A stretch of 64,000 nucleotides of DNA, from NCBI RefSeq assembly GCF_012933445.1, contig NZ_JABBNC010000004.1, positions 186,001 to 250,000 on the forward strand. The letters are read 5' to 3'. Positions 636-11,948 of the stretch are shown piece after piece. The stretch comes from Actinoplanes sp. TBRC 11911 (GTDB taxonomy: Bacteria; Actinomycetota; Actinomycetes; Mycobacteriales; Micromonosporaceae). The position numbers and the translations under genes were made by a program. The notes under the pieces are model-generated. The model saw nothing but the letters and a program-made list of their open reading frames with translations. It searched no databases and had not been told where the DNA came from. How positions within the stretch are numbered: the first letter of the stretch is position 1; each line of letters opens with the position of its first letter.

Positions 636-1397
636 TCAGCGGACGCCCACCACCGCCGCGTCGGTGCCGCCCCGCCACAGGACGCCGGCCTCGGTGAAGC
701 CGGCCACCCGCAGCGCGTCCAGGTGCCAGATCGCGGGCGGGGTCCACTCGGTGCTGTGGTGATCCAGCGGGTAGATGCGGTTCCGCTCGACCACCTTCTC
801 CGCCAGGAAGTCGTCCGCCGCGACCAGCTTCCACCAGTCCGTCCACGACGTGGCGGCGCCCGCTGCGTACCGGGCGTCGCGGCGCCCACGGGCGTACGAC
901 CGCAAACGCTCGGACAGCCCCGGCAGCGACTCCTCCGGCATGTGATCGGCGTTCGCGAAGATGCCGCCCGGGCGCAGCACCTCACGGATCTCCCCGTAGA
1001 GCGTCGCCACCCGCTCGGCCGGCAGCCAGTGCAGCGCCGTCGCGGTCAGCACCGCGTCGAAGCCGTCCTCGCTCAGCTTGGACCGCCACGCCGGGTCGCT
1101 CAGATCGGCGTCCACGATCGTGCCGCGCTCGCGCAGTGACGCCGTGGCGATCGCCAGCAGCACCGGGTCCTGGTCGAGCACCGTCACCCGCGCCCCCGGG
1201 AAGCGGGCCAGAGTGCGCAACGCGATGCTCCCGGTGCCGCCGGCCAGGTCGAGCAGCCGGGGCGGCGCTCCGTCGGTCACCGCGGCGACGGCGTTCAGCA
1301 TCGCGCCGAACCGCTCCTCGCGGTCCGGCATGAAGGCCAGCTGCTGCCGGTCCCAGCTCTCCTGGTAGATGTCCGCGTTCGTCAGGTAAGCACTCAT
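636..1397 (-). CDS. Class I SAM-dependent methyltransferase
   Basis: A 253-residue cytoplasmic methyltransferase. Motif I is LLDLAGGTGSIALR (about residues 48-61), followed by the acidic loop VTVLDQDPVLL and motif IV-like FDAVLTATALHWL. This is the UbiE/Methyltransf_25 type that acts on small molecules. The C-terminal half carries many aromatic residues (TSWTDWWKLV) and probably forms the substrate lid. Only 30 bases separate it from the stop of the VWA gene upstream, so it may be cotranscribed with the MoxR cluster. A GGAGG lies 19 bases before the ATG, farther than usual. Function in the cluster is unknown. Confidence 0.85.
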   Translation of the reverse strand: MSAYLTNADIYQESWDRQQLAFMPDREERFGAMLNAVAAVTDGAPPRLLDLAGGTGSIALRTLARFPGARVTVLDQDPVLLAIATASLRERGTIVDADLSDPAWRSKLSEDGFDAVLTATALHWLPAERVATLYGEIREVLRPGGIFANADHMPEESLPGLSERLRSYARGRRDARYAAGAATSWTDWWKLVAADDFLAEKVVERNRIYPLDHHSTEWTPPAIWHLDALRVAGFTEAGVLWRGGTDAAVVGVR

Positions 1398-1427: not shown

Positions 1428-2591
1428 TCACAACCCATCGCGGCCCTCGGCGAAGGCCCGCAGATCCCGGCGCTCGATCGCCGCGGCCATGACCTCGGGA
1501 AACGCGTCCGGCGTGCACGCGAACGCGGGAACACCCAGGGCCGCGAGCGCCGCCGCGTTGTCGTGGTCGTACGCCGGCGCGCCCTCATCGGACAACGCCA
1601 GCAACACCACGACCTGCACCCCGGCCGCCGTCATCTCGGCGACCCGGCGCAGCATCTGCTCCCGTACGCCACCCTCGTACAGATCGGAGATCAGCACGAA
1701 GATGCTGTCCCGCGGCCGCGAGATGAGCTGCTGGCCGTACGCGATCGCCCGGTTGATGTCGGTCCCGCCGCCGAGCTGCGTCCCGAACAGCACCTCCACC
1801 GGATCGCTGAGCTGCTCGGTCAGATCCACCACCGCGGTGTCGAACACGACCAGCGACGTGCGCAGCGACCGCATCGACGCGAGCACCGAGGCGAACACTC
1901 CGGAGAACACGACCGACGCCGCCATCGAGCCGGACTGGTCCACGCACAGCACCACATCGCGCTGCACCGACGTGGTCCGCCGCCCGTACCCGATCAGCCG
2001 GTCCGGGATCACCGTGCGGTATTCGGGCTGGTAGTGCTTGAGGTTGGCGCGGATGGTCCGGTCCCAGTCGATGTCCGCGTGCCGGGGCCGGTTGATCCGG
2101 GCGGCCCGGTTGAGCGCCCCGGTGACCGCCGCACGGGTCTTCTGCGAGATCCGCTTCTCCAGGTCCTCGACGACCGTGCGCACCACCTGCCGGGCCGCCT
2201 CCTTGGTCTTCGCCGGCATCACCCGGTTCAGCGAGAGCAGCGTGCCGACCAGATGCACGTCCGGTTCGACGGCGGCCAGCATCTCCGGCTCGAGCAGCAG
2301 CCGGGTCAGATCCAGCCGCTCGATCGCGTCGGACTGCATGACCTGCACGACCGTGCCGGGGAAATACTCCCGGATGTCGCCGAGCCAGCGGGCGACCTTC
2401 GGCGCCGAGCTGCCCAGCCCGGCCGACCGCCTGCCGCCCTGCTGCTCGGCGGCGTCGGGCCTGCCGCCCGCGTCGTAGAGCGCGGCGAGCGCCGCGTCCA
2501 TCTGACCGTCGCGGCCCTCGGGCTTGCCGAGCGCCTCGTCGGCCGGACCGCCGAGCACCATCCGCCACCGCCGCGACCGTTCGTCGCTCAT
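1428..2591 (-). CDS. VWA domain protein, partner of a MoxR ATPase
   Basis: A 387-residue cytoplasmic protein with no signal peptide or membrane span. The C-terminal half is a von Willebrand A domain with an intact metal-ion-dependent adhesion site, DQSGS at residues 218-222, followed by GGGTDIN and a later SDLYEGG metal loop. The N-terminal 200 residues are helical and contain a low-complexity linker. MoxR-type AAA+ ATPases commonly work with a VWA protein as a metal-dependent substrate adaptor. Its ATG overlaps the DUF5682 stop in ATGA (2588-2591), so the two are translationally coupled. It is the fourth gene of the SWIM-MoxR-DUF5682-VWA series. Confidence 0.9.
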   Translation of the reverse strand: MSDERSRRWRMVLGGPADEALGKPEGRDGQMDAALAALYDAGGRPDAAEQQGGRRSAGLGSSAPKVARWLGDIREYFPGTVVQVMQSDAIERLDLTRLLLEPEMLAAVEPDVHLVGTLLSLNRVMPAKTKEAARQVVRTVVEDLEKRISQKTRAAVTGALNRAARINRPRHADIDWDRTIRANLKHYQPEYRTVIPDRLIGYGRRTTSVQRDVVLCVDQSGSMAASVVFSGVFASVLASMRSLRTSLVVFDTAVVDLTEQLSDPVEVLFGTQLGGGTDINRAIAYGQQLISRPRDSIFVLISDLYEGGVREQMLRRVAEMTAAGVQVVVLLALSDEGAPAYDHDNAAALAALGVPAFACTPDAFPEVMAAAIERRDLRAFAEGRDGL

Positions 2592-4900
2592 CTGGCCTCC
2601 CGTCCGAGTAGCGCGCTGAGGGTGGGCAGCACGAGATCGGCCCGCCCCGGATCGAAGCCCAGCCCGGTCTCGTCCTGCGACCGCTTACCCGCGACGCGTT
2701 CCCCGATCGCGCGCCGCTCGCCGGCCTCGAACGCCCCGAACGTGCGCCGCAGCAACGGCAGCACGTCGTCGAACGCCTCGGCCGGGATGTCGGCCAGCCA
2801 GTCGTCGAGCAGCCGCAGCAGCGCGTCGTCGTGCACCAGCAGCAGCCCGCCGCCGGACAGGAACCCCTCGACCCACGCGGCCGCCTGCGCCGGCGGGGTG
2901 CCCACGGTCAGCGGCAGCCGCAGCCGGCGCCGGGCCTCCGCGGCGTCGAGCAGGCCCGCGTCCAGCAGCAGCCGGGTCAGCCGCCCGGCGAGCAGCCCGT
3001 GCAGGTCGCCGCGCCCGGCGAGCGACACCAGCGTGGCGAGCCAGCGTTCCCGCAGCTCCTCGTCCGCCAGCAGGCCGACCGCGGAGTGCACCGCGTCGAG
3101 CCGGTCGCGCAGGAGCTTCGCCGCCTCGTCGGAGAGCGACCCGACCGCCGACGGCAGCCCCGCGCAGACCCGGCCCAGCAGGCTCGTCGTCACCGCCGCC
3201 AGACCGGCCACGTCGGTGCGCCGCACATCGCCGTAGCGCAGCGTGCGGGCGAGCGCCGGGATCGCCGCCATCAAATGGTTGACGTCCGCGTCCAGCGCGG
3301 CGCGGGCGTCGAGCGAGGCGAGGACCCGGGGGTACGCGTCGGTGAGCTCCGCCAGCAGGCACGTCTCGACCAGGGCGGTCACGTCGGCGAGCGTCTCCGC
3401 GTCGTCCGCGGCGCGCACCACCTTGGCCGTCGCGGCCGCCGCCACCGTGGTGCCGTACATGCTGGCCTCGACCAGCCGCACCGCGAACTCCGGCTGCCAC
3501 CGCAGCCGCCACTCCTCGCGGAACGTCCCGGTGCCGCGGCGCCCTTCGGCGGGCTCACCCCAGGGCACGTCGATCATTCGAAGCCGATGCAGCAGCCGGC
3601 TGCGCCGCAGGTCGTTGTCCTTCCGCAAGTCAAGATCAAGCGCCCGCTCCAGCGCCTCCGGCTTGAGCTTCACGGACCGCTGCTGCGCGGCGAGATCCTT
3701 CGCCAGCGGCACGGCCGGCATCTCTTCCGGTACGCCACCGAGCCGTTCCCCGACCACCAGCTTCTTGTTGATGAGCTCCACGCGCAGCGGCTCGCCGTCG
3801 CACATGACCGCCTCGGCGGCCTCGGTCACCTCGGCCAGCCCGGCCAGCGGCCGCCCGCGCAGCGTCGCCAGCGACTCGGCCAGCCGCGTCGCCTCGATCA
3901 CGTGCGCCGACGACGTAGGCACCCCCTCGGCGCGCAGCACCCCGGCGGCGTCGACCAGCCAGCGCGGCACCACGTCGTCGGCGGCGCCGAACAGATGGTG
4001 ATACCACCCCGGCGACCGCACCCCCGCCCCGTAGCCCGACCAGGACGCCAGCCGCCCGTAGGTCCACGGCACCCAGGTGAACGAGACCTTGCGTTTCCGC
4101 CGCCCCTTGAGCAGCGCCGCGTCATCCTTGACCGCGACCTTGCGGGCCAGCGCCGGCACATGCCAGGCCCCGCAGACCACCACGATGTCCTCGTACGACT
4201 TGCGCACCTCCCGCAGGACCGTCCGCATGTACGCCTCGCGCACCAGGTCGTCCGGGTCCTCGGCCGACCCGTCCCGGATGGCCGTCATGGCCTCGGCGAT
4301 GGCCTCGAACGCCGGCATCCCGCGATGCTCGACGACGTCCTCCCACCAGCGTTCCGGATCGTCGTACCCGGCGGCGCCGGCCAGCTCCGCGATCGGGTCG
4401 AGGGGCCGCAGCTTCGCCGCCCCGTCGAGCAGCTCAACGCCGCCATCGGGGTCCGGCTCGGCGGGTTCGGGGGTGGGGTGAGACGGCTGCGGGCCTGCCT
4501 CCGGCCCCGGTTCCAGCCCGGCCGGCACCGCAGGCTCGGGCGCGGGCGGGGCGGGGGCGGCGGGTTTGGTCCGCGCGGCTCGGCCGGACAAGCGGTACGC
4601 GAACGGCAGGTCGAAGAAGCGGACCGGGACCCCGTGCTCGACCGCCCAGCGGATCGCCTGCCACTCCGGGGAGAACACCGCGAACGGCCAGAACGCGGCG
4701 TGGCGCGGGTCGTCCGTCGCGTAGCCCAGCAGCGCCACCGGGGGCTGCAAGCCGGTGTCGGCCACCCAGCGCACCAGATCGTCGGCCTCCGGCGGGCCCT
4801 CCACCAGCAGCACGTCCGGTGGCTGGCGCTCGAGCTCCTGCACCACGGCCCGCGCCGAACCCGGGCCGTGGTGGCGAATGCCGTAGAGCCGTTCAGGCAT
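2588..4900 (-). CDS. DUF5682 family protein with two GxxH motifs
   Basis: A 770-residue cytoplasmic protein of unknown biochemical function. It opens with GIRHHGPGSAR: the first GxxH is G7-H10, a conserved-looking glutamate is E34 in LLVEGPPE, and a second GxxH is GAWH at 244-247. This spacing resembles the TIKI/TraB/EreA-type hydrolase fold, in which two GxxH motifs and an acidic residue form a metal site; that link is my inference. A Pro-rich linker spans about 110-155, and the last 450 residues are helical repeats. The start at 4900 was preferred to 4924 because family members start MPER-like. Its first 8 bases overlap the MoxR stop. Confidence 0.88.
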   Translation of the reverse strand: MPERLYGIRHHGPGSARAVVQELERQPPDVLLVEGPPEADDLVRWVADTGLQPPVALLGYATDDPRHAAFWPFAVFSPEWQAIRWAVEHGVPVRFFDLPFAYRLSGRAARTKPAAPAPPAPEPAVPAGLEPGPEAGPQPSHPTPEPAEPDPDGGVELLDGAAKLRPLDPIAELAGAAGYDDPERWWEDVVEHRGMPAFEAIAEAMTAIRDGSAEDPDDLVREAYMRTVLREVRKSYEDIVVVCGAWHVPALARKVAVKDDAALLKGRRKRKVSFTWVPWTYGRLASWSGYGAGVRSPGWYHHLFGAADDVVPRWLVDAAGVLRAEGVPTSSAHVIEATRLAESLATLRGRPLAGLAEVTEAAEAVMCDGEPLRVELINKKLVVGERLGGVPEEMPAVPLAKDLAAQQRSVKLKPEALERALDLDLRKDNDLRRSRLLHRLRMIDVPWGEPAEGRRGTGTFREEWRLRWQPEFAVRLVEASMYGTTVAAAATAKVVRAADDAETLADVTALVETCLLAELTDAYPRVLASLDARAALDADVNHLMAAIPALARTLRYGDVRRTDVAGLAAVTTSLLGRVCAGLPSAVGSLSDEAAKLLRDRLDAVHSAVGLLADEELRERWLATLVSLAGRGDLHGLLAGRLTRLLLDAGLLDAAEARRRLRLPLTVGTPPAQAAAWVEGFLSGGGLLLVHDDALLRLLDDWLADIPAEAFDDVLPLLRRTFGAFEAGERRAIGERVAGKRSQDETGLGFDPGRADLVLPTLSALLGREAR

Positions 4901-5954
4901 CGCGGGCGGCCCGGTAGAAGTCACGCCAGTCCTCGCGCTCGCGGACCACCGTCTCCAGGTATTCGCGCCAGACCACGCCGTCGGACACCGGGTCCTTGAC
5001 GACCGCGCCGACGATCCCGGCCGCGACGTCGGACGGGTGCAGGCGGCCGTCGCCGAAGTGGGCCGCCAGCGCCATCCCGTTCGTGATCACCGAGATCGCC
5101 TCGGCGGTGGAGAGCGTGCCGGTCGGTGATTTCAGCTTGGTGCGGCCGTCCTCGGTGAGCCCGCCGCGCAGCTCGCGGAAGACCGTCACCACCCGCCGGA
5201 TCTCTTCCAGCGCCGCCGGGACCTCGGGCAGGTCGAGCGACCGGCCGAGCTGGGCGACCCGGCGCACCACGATCTCCACCTCGTCGTCGGCCGACGCCGG
5301 GACCGGCAGCACCACCGTGTTGAACCGGCGGCGCAGCGCGCTGGACAGCTCGTTCACCCCGCGGTCGCGGTCGTTGGCGGTGGCGATCAGGTTGAAGCCG
5401 CGCTGCGCCGCGACCTCCGTGTTCAGTTCCGGGATCGGCAGCGTCTTCTCGGACAGGATCGTGATCAGCGCGTCCTGCACGTCGGACGGCACCCGGGTGA
5501 GCTCCTCCAGCCGCGCGATCGAGCCGGTCCGCATCGCCCGCATGATCGGGCTGGGCACCAGCGCCGCGTCGGTCGGGCCGTCGGCGAGCAGGCGAGCGTA
5601 GTTCCAGCCGTACAGGATCGACTCCTCCGCGGTGCCGGCCGTGCCCTGCACCAGCAGCGTCGAGTCGCCGGAGATGGCCGCCGCGAGATGCTCGGACACC
5701 CACGTCTTGGCCGTGCCGGGCACCCCCAGCAGCAGCAACGCGCGGTCGGTGACCAGCGTGGACACCGCGACCTCCACGAGCCGGCGCGGTCCCACGTACT
5801 TCGGGGTGATCTTCGCGCCGTCGCCGAGCAGGTATGTCACCACGGCCTGCGGGGAGAGCCGCCACCCGGGCGGGCGGGGGCGGTCGTCGGCGGCGGCGAG
5901 CTGGGCCAGCTCCTCGGCGTACTGGTCCTCGGCGTGCGGGCGCAGTGCGGTCAC
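4893..5954 (-). CDS. MoxR-type AAA+ ATPase
   Basis: A 353-residue AAA+ ATPase of the MoxR branch. Walker A is GVPGTAKT (77-84). The Walker B region reads IARLEELTRVPSDVQDAL, sensor 1 is LIATANDRDRG, and the arginine-finger area is SSALRRRFNTV. MoxR ATPases act as chaperone-like machines on client proteins or metal centres, often through a VWA partner, which is two genes downstream here. The start is GTG at 5954: AAGGAG sits just upstream and GTGA overlaps the SWIM gene stop by 4 bases. Coding in this frame stays open far upstream inside the SWIM gene, but that extension is not part of the protein. Confidence 0.92.
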   Translation of the reverse strand: MTALRPHAEDQYAEELAQLAAADDRPRPPGWRLSPQAVVTYLLGDGAKITPKYVGPRRLVEVAVSTLVTDRALLLLGVPGTAKTWVSEHLAAAISGDSTLLVQGTAGTAEESILYGWNYARLLADGPTDAALVPSPIMRAMRTGSIARLEELTRVPSDVQDALITILSEKTLPIPELNTEVAAQRGFNLIATANDRDRGVNELSSALRRRFNTVVLPVPASADDEVEIVVRRVAQLGRSLDLPEVPAALEEIRRVVTVFRELRGGLTEDGRTKLKSPTGTLSTAEAISVITNGMALAAHFGDGRLHPSDVAAGIVGAVVKDPVSDGVVWREYLETVVREREDWRDFYRAARDA

Positions 5955-8695
5955 TTCGACTCCTTGGTGGACGGCGGAAAACCCAGCTCGGCGAACATGT
6001 CCTGCCGGAAGGCCAAGGCGCGGGCGAGGTCGGCGACCGGGCGGGCCCGCGTCGACGCGGCCGGTTCCTGGTCGAGCTGCAGCGCCAGCCGCGCCACCGT
6101 ATCGGCGTACCCGGGCGGCATGGCCAGGGCGGCGGCCCGGCACAACTCGCCGAGCTGCCACGTGTGCCGGTCGTTGCGGGCGCGGTGCGCGATCGTCTCC
6201 AGCACGGCCACCGACAGCTCCTCGGGCCAGCGGCCGGGGTGGATGGCGAGCAGACGATGGGCCATCGGGTCCTCCCGGCGCAGAGCGTCGGCGGCGAGCC
6301 GGCCCAGCGCGTCCGGCGGCAGCACCAGATGCAGATCCCACCGCACGGACTCGCGCAGCGCGGCGGACGCCTCGCTGAGCAGCACGCCCGCCCACGCCGC
6401 GTCGTCCTGCGCCACCGCGGCCTTGGCCCAGCCGTGCAGCAGCGCGGTCTCCCAGTCGTTGTGCCGGGCCAGCGCCAGCATCGTCGGCGGGTCGGCCCAC
6501 GTCGCCAGGGGAGTGCCGGCCAGCACCTCCTCGAGCAGCCAGGCGCTCACGCCGAGGCCGCGGGCCGGGGTCGCGGCGACCCCGTCGCGCCGCAGCTCCG
6601 CGGACAGCTCGGCGGGCGGCGTGACGACCAGCCGGCCCGGGCGCTCGAACCGGACCGCGGCCCTTGCGCGTTCCGCCATGCGTGCGCCGAGCGCCGACCC
6701 GGGCAGCCGGCGCAGCAGCTCGAGGGCCGCCTCGCGCACCTCCTTGCGGCGGTCGTCGAGCGCCGCCTCCAGGAACGGGTCGTCGTCGAGCGACAGGCCG
6801 ACGCCCAGGACGGCCACGAACCGTGCCCGATCCTCCGACGAGTCCTGCTGCCACGTGCTTTCGAGCAGCTCGCGGCCGCGCGCCGGGTCGGTCTCGCGCA
6901 GCGATGTCAGCAACCCGAGACGCTCGCCGGAACCGCCCGTCTCCCACGAGCCCGCGGCCGACGCCTCCTCCCGCAGCCACCGCCAGTCGGCGCGGCGGCC
7001 CGCCAGCCAGGCGCCGCGCTGGCCGGCGACCCGGGCCAGGTCGGGCCGGATGATCGAGTTGCGGCGGCCGGCGTCCAGCAGGCCGGGCAGCGCGGCCGGT
7101 GGCACGTGCCCGCCGCGTTCCGCCGCGGCCGCAAGCCATTGCGCGAGGAGTTCCTGGGCGAGCGGCACACCCTCGCCGAGGATGCGGATCAGCCGGGCGC
7201 CGGCCGCGGCGGGCAGCGGAGCGTCGGTCTCGTCGGGGGCGGGCGACACCGGCTCGTGCCCGGTCGCGGGCAGCACGCCGGCGCGGTGCCTCAGGAGCGC
7301 GACCGCGGCCGCGTCCAGCAGGGAGCCCTCGCCCGTCCAGGGACGGCGGTTCGTGCCGACCAGGGCCGCCGCCAGCAGCGCGGGCGGCAGCTCGGGGCTG
7401 CGCCGCGCGGTCGGCTCGGGCCACGTCGCCGCCGCGGGCACGAACGCACCGTCGACCCAGGCGGACAGCGGGCGCAGCCCGGACGGCGACCACTCGGCCG
7501 CCACCGTCGCGGGCCGGCCACCGGCGGCGGCCAGCAGCCACCACGGCTCGCGATGGCCGGGCGCGAGCGGAAGCCCCTCGCCGGTGGCGTCGACCAGCCA
7601 GCCGTCGCCGGTCAGCCGGACGTCGTCGAGCAGCATCGGCGCGTCGTAGCGCCAAGGCTCGGCGGCGATCGTCGAGGACCAGCCGTGCAGGGCGGCGGCC
7701 AGCGGTTTCGTGCCGTCCGGGGAGCGGAACGGCTCGGCGGCGCTCTGCCGTTCGGCCACCAGCGCGCGCAACGGCGCCGCGCCCGGATAGAAGGCCAGCT
7801 CGCCGCGGAACTCGGTGCCCGGCACGAGATCGGCGACCAGCGACTGGCCCGGCGCGGCGAAGGACAGGACCAGCGCGAACCGGTCGTGTGCCGAGCCGTG
7901 CAGCCACGTGCGCCGGGTGGTCAGCGCGCCGTCGTCGGTCTCCACCTGGCCGAGCACCTGCCAGCGGTCGGCGACCCGGGGACCGGCCAGCACGTCGTCG
8001 GTGCCGACCGGGAACCCGATGCGGCTGCGGACCGTCGCGGCCAGCTCCGGTGGCAGGTCGGCGAGCCGCTCATAGCCGGAGACCAGCAGCCGGAGCAACG
8101 CGAGCTCGCCCAGCAGACGGTCGGCCCAGTGCGGCCCGACCCCGGCGTAGAAGCCCAACCGGCGCACGGCGGAAGCGGCCGCCGGCGCCTGGGCGTCGAC
8201 CAGGCGGGCGGCCATCGTCTCGAAGGACCGCTGGCTGTCGGCCAGGCCCTGCCGCACCTGATCGTCGAGCCAGCGGCGCAGCTCGGCCATGCCGCCGGCG
8301 ACCCGCTCGGCCCGCTGCTCGGCCCGTTTCGCGGCGGCCACCGGATCGGGCGTCGAGGCGGCCCGCGGCCTGGTGGCGCGGGCGGCGCGCGCGGCCTGCC
8401 ACTCCCGGGCGAAGGCCGGCGCGTCCGCGTCCGAAACGCCCTGCTCGGCCCAGCGGATCATCAGGCCCAGGGCGTGCTTGCAGGGGATCTTGCGGCTGGG
8501 GCAGGAGCAGCGATACGCCGGACCGGACAGATCGACACAAACCTGATAGCGGTGGTACACACCCCATAGAATGTCGTCGAGCCGGCCGGTCGCCGACCAG
8601 GACGCGGCGCCGGACAGCGCACGGGCGGCACCCACCGACGACGCGTCCGGAGCGAGCGCCTCGATCTGGCTGGTGGACCACCGTTCATCAAGCAC
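5951..8695 (-). CDS. SWIM zinc-finger protein fused to a DUF5691-like domain
   Basis: A 914-residue protein and the first gene of the MoxR cluster. The SWIM zinc finger is CSC...CKH with ligands C63, C65, C72 and H74; SWIM fingers mediate DNA or protein binding. Residues about 80-430 form the usual remainder of a bacterial SWIM protein. From about 436 a second module begins with LPPALLAAALVGTNRRPW, the hallmark opening of DUF5691, and ends in HEAT-like helices. In related clusters, as I recall them, these modules are often separate adjacent genes, so this looks like a fusion. The start is GTG. The neighbouring gene at 8744 is divergent, so the cluster promoter should lie in 8696-8743. Confidence 0.88.
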   Translation of the reverse strand: MLDERWSTSQIEALAPDASSVGAARALSGAASWSATGRLDDILWGVYHRYQVCVDLSGPAYRCSCPSRKIPCKHALGLMIRWAEQGVSDADAPAFAREWQAARAARATRPRAASTPDPVAAAKRAEQRAERVAGGMAELRRWLDDQVRQGLADSQRSFETMAARLVDAQAPAAASAVRRLGFYAGVGPHWADRLLGELALLRLLVSGYERLADLPPELAATVRSRIGFPVGTDDVLAGPRVADRWQVLGQVETDDGALTTRRTWLHGSAHDRFALVLSFAAPGQSLVADLVPGTEFRGELAFYPGAAPLRALVAERQSAAEPFRSPDGTKPLAAALHGWSSTIAAEPWRYDAPMLLDDVRLTGDGWLVDATGEGLPLAPGHREPWWLLAAAGGRPATVAAEWSPSGLRPLSAWVDGAFVPAAATWPEPTARRSPELPPALLAAALVGTNRRPWTGEGSLLDAAAVALLRHRAGVLPATGHEPVSPAPDETDAPLPAAAGARLIRILGEGVPLAQELLAQWLAAAAERGGHVPPAALPGLLDAGRRNSIIRPDLARVAGQRGAWLAGRRADWRWLREEASAAGSWETGGSGERLGLLTSLRETDPARGRELLESTWQQDSSEDRARFVAVLGVGLSLDDDPFLEAALDDRRKEVREAALELLRRLPGSALGARMAERARAAVRFERPGRLVVTPPAELSAELRRDGVAATPARGLGVSAWLLEEVLAGTPLATWADPPTMLALARHNDWETALLHGWAKAAVAQDDAAWAGVLLSEASAALRESVRWDLHLVLPPDALGRLAADALRREDPMAHRLLAIHPGRWPEELSVAVLETIAHRARNDRHTWQLGELCRAAALAMPPGYADTVARLALQLDQEPAASTRARPVADLARALAFRQDMFAELGFPPSTKESK

Positions 8696-11558: not shown

Positions 11559-11948
11559 GCGTGTGAAGGTGCGCCGTTGGGGTGGGCGCGGGTTCCCGCA
11601 CCGGGCTTGGCGTGGGGTGGGTGTGTGAAGCCGCGACGTTGGGGTGGGCGCGGGTTCCCGCACCGGGCTTGGCGTGGGGTGGGTGTGTGAAGCCGCGACG
11701 TTGGGGTGGGCGCGGGTCTCCACACCGGGCTTGGCGTGGGGTGGGTGTGTGAAGCCGCGCCGTTGGGGTGGGCGCGGGTCCCCACACCGGGCTTGGCGTG
11801 GGGTGGGTGTGTGAAGCCGCGACGTCGGGGTGGGCGCGGGTCTCCACACCGGGCTTGTGCGCGGGTCGGTGTGTGAAGCCGGGACGTTGGGGCGGGCGCA
11901 GGTGCCCACACCGGGGCTTGGCACGGGTCCGTGTGTGAAGCCGCGACG
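11559..11948. repeat. 62-bp tandem repeat array, six units plus a partial
   Basis: Units begin at 11559, 11621, 11683, 11745, 11807 and 11869, with an 18-base remnant at 11931. The spacing is exactly 62 bases, and a typical unit starts GTGTGTGAAGCCGCGACGTT. The middle copies differ by a few bases; the outer copies have drifted more. The unit length is not a multiple of three and every frame is proline/arginine-rich, so it is not a peptide repeat. It fills most of the 480-base gap between two convergent genes. Each unit can form short inverted pairs (CACACC with GGTGTG; CGGG with CCCG). Confidence 0.93.

What the first reader, a model, noticed from the sequence alone, without database searches (positions are those of the whole stretch)
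1428..8695. Coupled SWIM/DUF5691-MoxR-DUF5682-VWA cluster with a possible TIKI/TraB-like enzyme
Seen: four genes overlapping by 4-8 bases on one strand (GTGA at 5951, ATGCCTGA at 4893, ATGA at 2588), so they should be made as a set. Known: MoxR ATPases partner with VWA proteins, and SWIM fingers bind nucleic acid or protein. Inference: DUF5682 has two GxxH motifs (7-10, 244-247) and E34, as in TIKI/TraB/EreA-like hydrolases, so the set could be an ATP-powered machine delivering a client to a metal hydrolase, possibly in stress or conflict defence. I know of computational catalogues of MoxR-VWA systems but no biochemistry for this set.
Basis: partly seen in the sequence, partly recalled or inferred. 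Interest (0 to 1): 0.8.

Follow-up and report, generated by a model that had tools for sequence, protein, structure and literature searches.

The report
ATP machine with TIKI-like enzyme
Four neighbouring genes, also present in an unstudied form in most E. coli strains, appear to encode an ATP-driven protein-remodelling pair coupled to an enzyme of the TIKI/TraB protease fold, which would give a testable job to genes still labelled 'function unknown'.

The parts
5951..8695 (-). SWIM zinc finger (CxCx6CxH at residues 63-74) fused to DUF5691; 914 aa; candidate recognition subunit
   Evidence: Pfam PF04434 and PF18944; motif; separate genes in most relatives, one open frame in 15 of 80 loci and in L110, and in Hymenobacter
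4893..5954 (-). MoxR-type AAA+ ATPase, 353 aa, GTG start; relative of E. coli YehL (44% identity)
   Evidence: AAA_5 9.6e-40; Walker A, ATAN and LRRRF motifs; BLAST against E. coli YehL
2588..4900 (-). DUF5682 protein, 770 aa: N-terminal TIKI/TraB-fold hydrolase-like domain (about residues 1-290, disordered insert 111-163) plus helical, solenoid-like C-terminal part (about 430-742); relative of E. coli YehM
   Evidence: PF18934 1.4e-275; models; fold comparison; hhalign to TraB; conservation
4871..4882 (-). first motif G7-I8-R9-H10 of DUF5682, directly after strand 1 of the model
   Evidence: H10 in 84 of 84, G7 in 78 of 84 aligned proteins
4799..4801 (-). E34 of DUF5682, directly after strand 2
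   Evidence: 84 of 84
4160..4171 (-). second motif G244-A245-W246-H247 of DUF5682
   Evidence: G244 and H247 in 84 of 84
1428..2591 (-). CoxE-type VWA protein, 387 aa, with MIDAS (DxSxS, GGGT, ISD); relative of E. coli YehP
   Evidence: PF05762 5.6e-55; motifs; BLAST

Best explanation
The four genes encode one machine. A MoxR AAA+ ring, capped by a CoxE-like VWA adaptor, uses ATP to remodel a client, and the third protein, DUF5682, is a TIKI/TraB-fold hydrolase (most likely a site-specific peptidase) carried on a helical solenoid-like arm and docked on the VWA subunit. The SWIM-DUF5691 protein is the recognition subunit that brings in a nucleic-acid- or protein-bound target. Shown here by computation: homology of each part, the TIKI/TraB-like fold and invariant His/Glu/Arg residues of DUF5682, the helical arm, conserved co-occurrence, and gene fusions pairing SWIM with DUF5691 and DUF5682 with VWA. 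Inferred: that the complex forms, that DUF5682 cuts anything, that the bond is a peptide bond, that ATP hydrolysis gates the cut, and that SWIM selects the target.
For: DUF5682 fold and profile: 8 of the top 11 VIA-align rows are ChaN, HopBA1, EreC, Bcr-type Ere relatives and RRSP (superfamily membership of HopBA1, Bcr135, ChaN and RRSP from PMC6254334 passages). hhalign to TraB has probability 95%, with H10, E34, R221 and H247 falling on H, E, R and H of the TraB sequence; 40 decoys score at most 31.6 against 42.8 in the rerun. In 84 proteins of types A to D from seven phyla 24 positions are invariant, among them H10, E34, E79, D97, R221, E222, G244 and H247, which fits an active site better than a dead scaffold. 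Coupling: MoxR and VWA at 27 of 27 DUF5682 loci; DUF5682-VWA is one open frame at all 5 type D loci of that sample; SWIM-DUF5691 fusions; the same 8 of 146 cyanobacteria hold DUF5682, DUF5691 and this MoxR; the three gene trees of 12 hand-picked sets give the same types. MoxR-VWA mechanics (VWA finger in the MoxR pore, MIDAS contacting the target): PMC9976466 passages.
Confidence: 0.5

Rival explanations
1. Maturation machine. As with CoxD/CoxE and NorQ/NorD, MoxR-VWA opens and loads a metalloenzyme, and that client is DUF5682 itself (or an unlinked enzyme); SWIM-DUF5691 is a scaffold. DUF5682 would be the product being activated, not a subunit of the working machine.
For: The VWA is of the CoxE family. 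NorQ/NorD insert FeB through VWA-MIDAS contact with the target (PMC9976466). DUF5682 is the only enzyme-like protein constant in the set.
Against: Constant co-retention and DUF5682-VWA fusion look like a standing complex rather than a chaperone that lets go; a metal site in DUF5682 is unproven.
Confidence: 0.22
2. Defence or conflict system, in the style of the MoxR-vWA ternary systems, with DUF5682 as effector and SWIM as sensor.
For: Similar MoxR-vWA logic (PMC7159879 passages); MoxR is marginally above the bpMoxR cut-off (27.6 against 27 bits); the type C MoxR of the own genome hits the PADLOC mad8 model at 1.7e-5 and its VWA hits TerY at 2.9e-4; 7 of the 17 DUF5682 genomes are 7-10 Mb genomes of one genus; one Iodobacter plasmid copy lies beside restriction-modification genes.
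Against: No PADLOC hit better than E 0.014 for the four window proteins, and for 7 relatives only domain-level hits of AAA or VWA. Matched in 5301 of 5426 E. coli genomes with median one copy. One phage record of 50,697 and no viral contig. Variable effectors were not searched for systematically.
Confidence: 0.12
3. DUF5682 keeps the TIKI fold as a binding module only (heme, metal or peptide), like ChaN, and the set is a regulated scaffold or trafficking complex.
Against: Besides the His pair, E34, E79, D97, R221 and E222 are invariant in 84 of 84; the only significant profile match is TraB, not ChaN.
Confidence: 0.12

Closest known systems
E. coli K-12 yehL-yehM-yehP-yehQ (YehL is the name-giver of a MoxR subfamily)
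   Same: MoxR, DUF5682, VWA and SWIM genes adjacent on one strand; MoxR 44%, VWA 37%, DUF5682 26% identity to the window
   Different: Gene order differs (SWIM last); DUF5691 did not ring in the E. coli control genome; a DUF4132 gene (yehI, then yehK) lies upstream. This is our type B; the window is type A.
TIKI/TraB/ChaN/Ere superfamily
   Same: alpha/beta core, GxxH after strand 1, Glu after strand 2, late GxxH
   Different: Long helical C-terminus; extra H11; coupled to MoxR-VWA; in 8 N-terminal domains scanned, no Pfam match to PF01963 or PF05139 and one sub-threshold PF04187 hit (E 0.022)
CoxD/CoxE and NorQ/NorD cofactor-insertion pairs
   Same: MoxR AAA+ plus VWA with MIDAS; VWA_CoxE family
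   Different: No gene annotated as CO dehydrogenase or NO reductase in the annotated stretches seen; constant TIKI-fold partner instead
MoxR-vWA ternary conflict systems (VMAP, iSTAND, FtsH, beta-propeller; PMC7159879)
   Same: MoxR and vWA as shared core with a third constant protein
   Different: Pfam shows none of the four third components in the window proteins; the paper's main text has no match for YehL, DUF4132 or WGR or SWIM (count)

Membership tests
TIKI/TraB superfamily | beta-sheet core of the TIKI fold | tested here: met
   VIA-align rows ChaN 8.6, HopBA1 7.6, EreC 7.3, 2qgm 6.9, 3b55 6.7, 2rad 6.6, RRSP 6.2; caveats: Foldseek E above 0.001 for all, modest Z
TIKI/TraB superfamily | two GxxH motifs and Glu after strand 2 | tested here: met
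   H10, E34, G244, H247 84 of 84; first Gly 78 of 84
TIKI/TraB superfamily | profile similarity to a named family of the superfamily | tested here: met
   TraB probability 95%, E 3.5e-8, rerun 75.6% and above 40 decoys; ChaN and Ere no signal
TIKI/TraB superfamily | 2His/2Glu catalytic set incl. the ExH Glu as in RRSP and ChaN | tested here: not met
   two residues before H10 stands I, V or M in 84 of 84; the TraB consensus GTAH also lacks it
TIKI/TraB superfamily | hydrolase activity | not testable with these tools
   needs protein
MoxR AAA+ family, YehL-like | AAA_5 domain with Walker A, sensor and Arg-finger-type motifs; partner VWA gene | tested here: met
   VWA and MoxR adjacent at 27 of 27 DUF5682 loci
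MoxR AAA+ family, YehL-like | closer to YehL than to other MoxR subfamilies by tree | tested here: inconclusive
   44% to YehL against at most 34% to the other MoxR hits in 146 cyanobacteria; no tree with all subfamilies built
MoxR-vWA ternary conflict systems | VMAP, iSTAND, FtsH or beta-propeller third component | tested here: not met
   Pfam at E <= 1 shows none in the four window proteins; genes further away not scanned
MoxR-vWA ternary conflict systems | variable effector domains | not tested
   the core modules are constant in 71 of 80 loci, but variable neighbours were not searched
CoxD/CoxE or NorQ/NorD insertion systems | adjacent target metalloenzyme of known type | tested here: not met
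   none annotated in the 8 annotated stretches; in the window only five proteins were scanned
catalogued anti-phage systems | match to PADLOC models | tested here: not met
   window: two weak IetA hits at E 0.014 and 0.063 to residues 68-94; 7 relatives: best are mad8 1.7e-5 and TerY 2.9e-4 on type C, domain-level and partial

The most novel reading that the evidence does not exclude
An unrecognised, widely conserved ATP-gated TIKI protease. A MoxR-VWA motor switches on, or feeds, a TraB/TIKI-fold peptidase held on a helical arm, with a SWIM-containing subunit choosing nucleic-acid-bound targets. It exists in at least four old versions that spread over several phyla as units, including a near-universal one in E. 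coli. It would be a regulated-cleavage machine mechanistically unlike Clp, Lon or FtsH, because the motor does not thread its client.
Probability: 0.33. Interest if true: 0.87.

Novelty: new variant of a known kind. Interest (0 to 1): 0.63.

Why it matters
E. coli yehLMPQ is still annotated as uncharacterised or only by domain in the best-studied bacterial genome, and YehL, one of the two MoxR ATPases of K-12, has no assigned job in the paper passages seen (PMC3893208). Recognising YehM/DUF5682 as a TIKI/TraB-fold protein gives a concrete biochemical hypothesis, named residues to test and a laboratory strain to test them in. It would add a new kind of client to MoxR-VWA machines and a prokaryotic setting for the TIKI protease fold known from Wnt control in animals. 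The exact co-retention in genomes where the genes are scattered makes a shared function hard to doubt even though the function is unknown.

Tried and rejected
Full-length DUF5682 fold search: the helical C-terminal part filled the list (designed repeats, retromer VPS35, importins), so the N-terminal domain was predicted alone at the cost of a model for SWIM-DUF5691, which was therefore not folded. PDB sequence search with the DUF5682 profile: 0 matches. Viral contigs: 56 pattern matches, none a relative. ChaN family in 30 genomes of the class: 0, so taken from cyanobacteria, 7 of 39 genomes. TraB in 4 genomes: 0, so taken from another phylum, 4 of 40 over cut-off. hhalign of DUF5682 to ChaN and Ere: no signal, inside the decoy range; ChaN against Ere also gave none, so the lack says little. 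MadB (NCBIfam) rejected: 46.7 bits against a cut-off of 475. Downstream methyltransferase (636-1397) considered as a fifth gene and rejected: found at 11 of the 80 loci, all Actinoplanes-type genera. Promoter and terminator scan: nothing convincing. A molybdate role suggested by the old name molR for a yehI neighbour was not pursued: one Deinococcus paper reports moeA/moeB unchanged (PMC8533742 passages). Papers: searches for DUF5682 and DUF5691 gave 0 papers each; gene-name searches showed no functional study of these genes among the listed rows (one search matched 650 papers, 40 listed, largely the string 'YehL' in other senses); further searches. Bazan et al. 2013 was seen only as a reference entry. 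All papers cited here were seen as passages found by term, not read whole; PMC10652928 as one passage.

Rows dropped before counts: only hits of 50 bits or more were counted. In one search, 84 proteins were used (64 rows of A3 plus 20 picked by hand); 17 of the 80 loci, L021 among them, were not in A3, and A4 has 54 rows. The 12 sets of the trees were hand-picked and the trees are unrooted.
Full report
Observation. The window holds four minus-strand genes: SWIM+DUF5691 (8695-5951), MoxR (5954-4893), DUF5682 (4900-2588) and CoxE-type VWA (2591-1428). They overlap by 4, 8 and 4 bases. Domain calls are strong, the weakest being the SWIM finger at 4.2e-6. The Walker A, MIDAS and SWIM signatures are present.

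A known operon in E. coli. A search of the window's own genome (9.66 Mb) for PF18934 gave three places, and 2 of 14 control genomes rang: E. coli and Deinobacterium chartae. In E. coli K-12, yehL, yehM, yehP and yehQ are MoxR, DUF5682, VWA and SWIM in a row, with the DUF4132 gene yehI and then yehK upstream. The block is matched in 5301 of 5426 E. coli genomes, and 5162 have a place covering at least 80% of it. So the set is not peculiar to the window, and in E. coli it behaves as core genome. It is dispensable in the laboratory: a genome-reduced strain lacks the segment (PMC10652928, one passage).

Four types. The own genome has the window set (type A), a yeh-like set with a WGR-DUF4132 gene (type B, L005; its SWIM-position protein has the CxC...CxH motif but no Pfam SWIM hit) and a third (type C, L006) with MoxR, VWA and a diverged DUF5682. 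In 198 genomes of the phylum, 17 have DUF5682, at 27 loci after merging one split match. I fetched the flanks of 24 of the 27; the other three are the own-genome sets. By BLAST all 27 carry MoxR and VWA adjacent: 16 type A, 3 B, 3 C and 5 D. In type D, DUF5682 and VWA are one protein: checked by Pfam for L087, and for the other four by both matches falling in one open frame. A named Streptomyces plasmid has the same layout. The motif CxC...CxH occurs in the A, B and D proteins checked (9 of 9), not in the two type C proteins.

Breadth. Annotated records show the order SWIM, DUF5691, AAA, DUF5682, VWA in Deinococcus (with a small extra gene) and Rhizobium, and the same without an annotated VWA in Methylosinus. 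In Hymenobacter SWIM and DUF5691 are fused (SWIM 15.7 bits, below the 19.6 cut-off, but the motif is there). The type B layout occurs in Iodobacter and, reordered, in Agrobacterium. An unannotated Fusobacterium record has MoxR, DUF5682, VWA and a short match to the SWIM part. Of 80 genome contigs most like the window (chosen by similarity, 80 of 560 relatives), 71 have all five modules, 8 end at contig ends and 1 (L045) has DUF5682 alone. SWIM and DUF5691 lie in one open frame in 15 of the 80. Their genera are Micromonosporaceae in the taxonomy except Amorphoplanes, not among the names shown there, which I place in that family from memory. Dactylosporangium and Catellatospora of the same family have two genes. 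L110, from the window's order, also has one frame. The SWIM/DUF5691 genes point away from MoxR in 28 of the 80, with it in 49, and were not found in 3. On plasmid records the window protein and YehM match 36 and 31 of 72,556, some of them chromosome-sized.

Co-retention without linkage. In 146 cyanobacterial genomes, DUF5682 over cut-off is in 8, DUF5691 over cut-off in 8 and a MoxR at 62-73% identity in 8, and these are the same 8 genomes. The other MoxR hits are at most 34% identical. In G228 and G331 the three genes lie more than 0.7 Mb from each other on one contig; in G383 they are on three contigs, one only 5 kb long, so their distance there is unknown. The chance of two families hitting the same 8 of 146 is 2.4e-13 if genomes were independent, which related genomes are not. 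Against this, sub-threshold matches (E <= 0.001) occur in 7 further genomes for DUF5691 and 1 for DUF5682, and VWA and SWIM were not surveyed there. In the phylum of the window, all 16 genomes with DUF5691 over cut-off have DUF5682; the 17th DUF5682 genome (G124) has type B; 3 further genomes have sub-threshold DUF5691 matches. For the orphan L045 the genome holds the MoxR elsewhere.

By sequence, hhalign against five TraB-family proteins gave probability 95% and E 3.5e-8 over residues 3-253. This is stronger than TraB against ChaN (58.6%). The alignment puts H10, E34, R221 and H247 of DUF5682 on H, E, R and H of the TraB sequence. A rerun with other column settings gave 75.6% and score 42.8, against a maximum of 31.6 for 40 decoys. 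ChaN and Ere alignments gave no signal.

Conservation. In 84 DUF5682 proteins (68 type A, 6 B, 3 C, 6 D, 1 Fusobacterium) from seven phyla, 24 positions are invariant, among them H10, E34, S77, E79, D97, R221, E222, M225, G244 and H247; H11 is in 83. These positions survive where overall identity is about 25%.

Evolution as a unit. Unrooted trees of MoxR, VWA and DUF5682 for the same 12 sets each separate type A from B, C and D (support 1.00, 0.998, 1.00) and recover B and C. The own genome's B set groups with the B sets of E. coli, Iodobacter and Agrobacterium, not with its own A set. The types therefore predate the spread over these phyla, or moved as blocks.

Mechanism. Work on NorQ/NorD models the VWA plugging the MoxR ring, with its MIDAS reaching the target, and argues against threading the client through the pore (PMC9976466 passages). 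Applied here by inference: MoxR drives VWA, VWA holds or contacts DUF5682, and DUF5682 hydrolyses a client recruited by SWIM-DUF5691. The reaction could be proteolysis, as in Tiki and RRSP, or ester hydrolysis, as in Ere enzymes. A maturation model, in which MoxR-VWA activates DUF5682, explains most of the same facts and cannot be excluded. A defence role is not supported by PADLOC, whose best hits are mad8 (1.7e-5) and TerY (2.9e-4) on type C proteins and nothing better than 0.014 on the window's, nor by the E. coli distribution or phage and viral records.

What is new. I found no paper in the held library that names DUF5682 or DUF5691. The MoxR-vWA conflict catalogue has no match in its main text for YehL, WGR or DUF4132. 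The YehL subfamily itself is known (PMC3893208 passages). Subscription papers and preprints are largely not held, so earlier notice of the TIKI link cannot be excluded.

Noticed in passing
L005 (G000:C20:34000-52000) and L006 (G000:C34:83000-101000): Two further DUF5682-MoxR-VWA sets in the same genome, of types B and C; type B has one WGR-DUF4132 gene upstream, where E. coli has yehF (WGR) and yehI (DUF4132) as separate genes.
   Followed up: yes
L087, L088, L107, L108, L109, L147: Sets in which DUF5682 and VWA are one protein. Upstream in L107 and L147 lie a DUF4132 gene and a protein of about 1640-1680 aa without a Pfam domain; L087 has a 2127-aa frame there without Pfam match. The other three were not looked at upstream.
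   Followed up: partly
window 636-1397: Methyltransferase gene 30 bases downstream of the VWA gene, same strand; kept at 11 of 80 related loci, all Actinoplanes-type genera.
   Followed up: yes
window 11561-11948: Tandem array of a 62-base unit, 6.3 copies, 91% matches, between two genes that look by eye like a cation exchanger and a LacI-type regulator.
   Followed up: no
L005:14594-17878: Protein with right-handed beta-helix repeats followed by two AAA domains, near the type B set.
   Followed up: no
phage record MT835988.1, 10638-12755: The only phage-collection record with a DUF5682 match (28% identity, 95% of the query); a 14-kb unannotated faecal record that may be bacterial DNA.
   Followed up: no
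PDB 7w5z chain E (fold search): A Tetrahymena mitochondrial complex IV subunit is the top fold match of the DUF5682 N-terminal domain; possibly an unremarked TIKI-fold subunit.
   Followed up: no
E. coli yeh region (PMC9334617 passages): In one ST131 sublineage a transposon is reported inserted in the metG/DUF4132/yeh region.
   Followed up: no
window MoxR residues 146-154: Walker B reads LEELTR; the first acidic residue is Glu rather than Asp in the four sequences looked at by eye (window, own B and C sets, E. coli YehL).
   Followed up: partly
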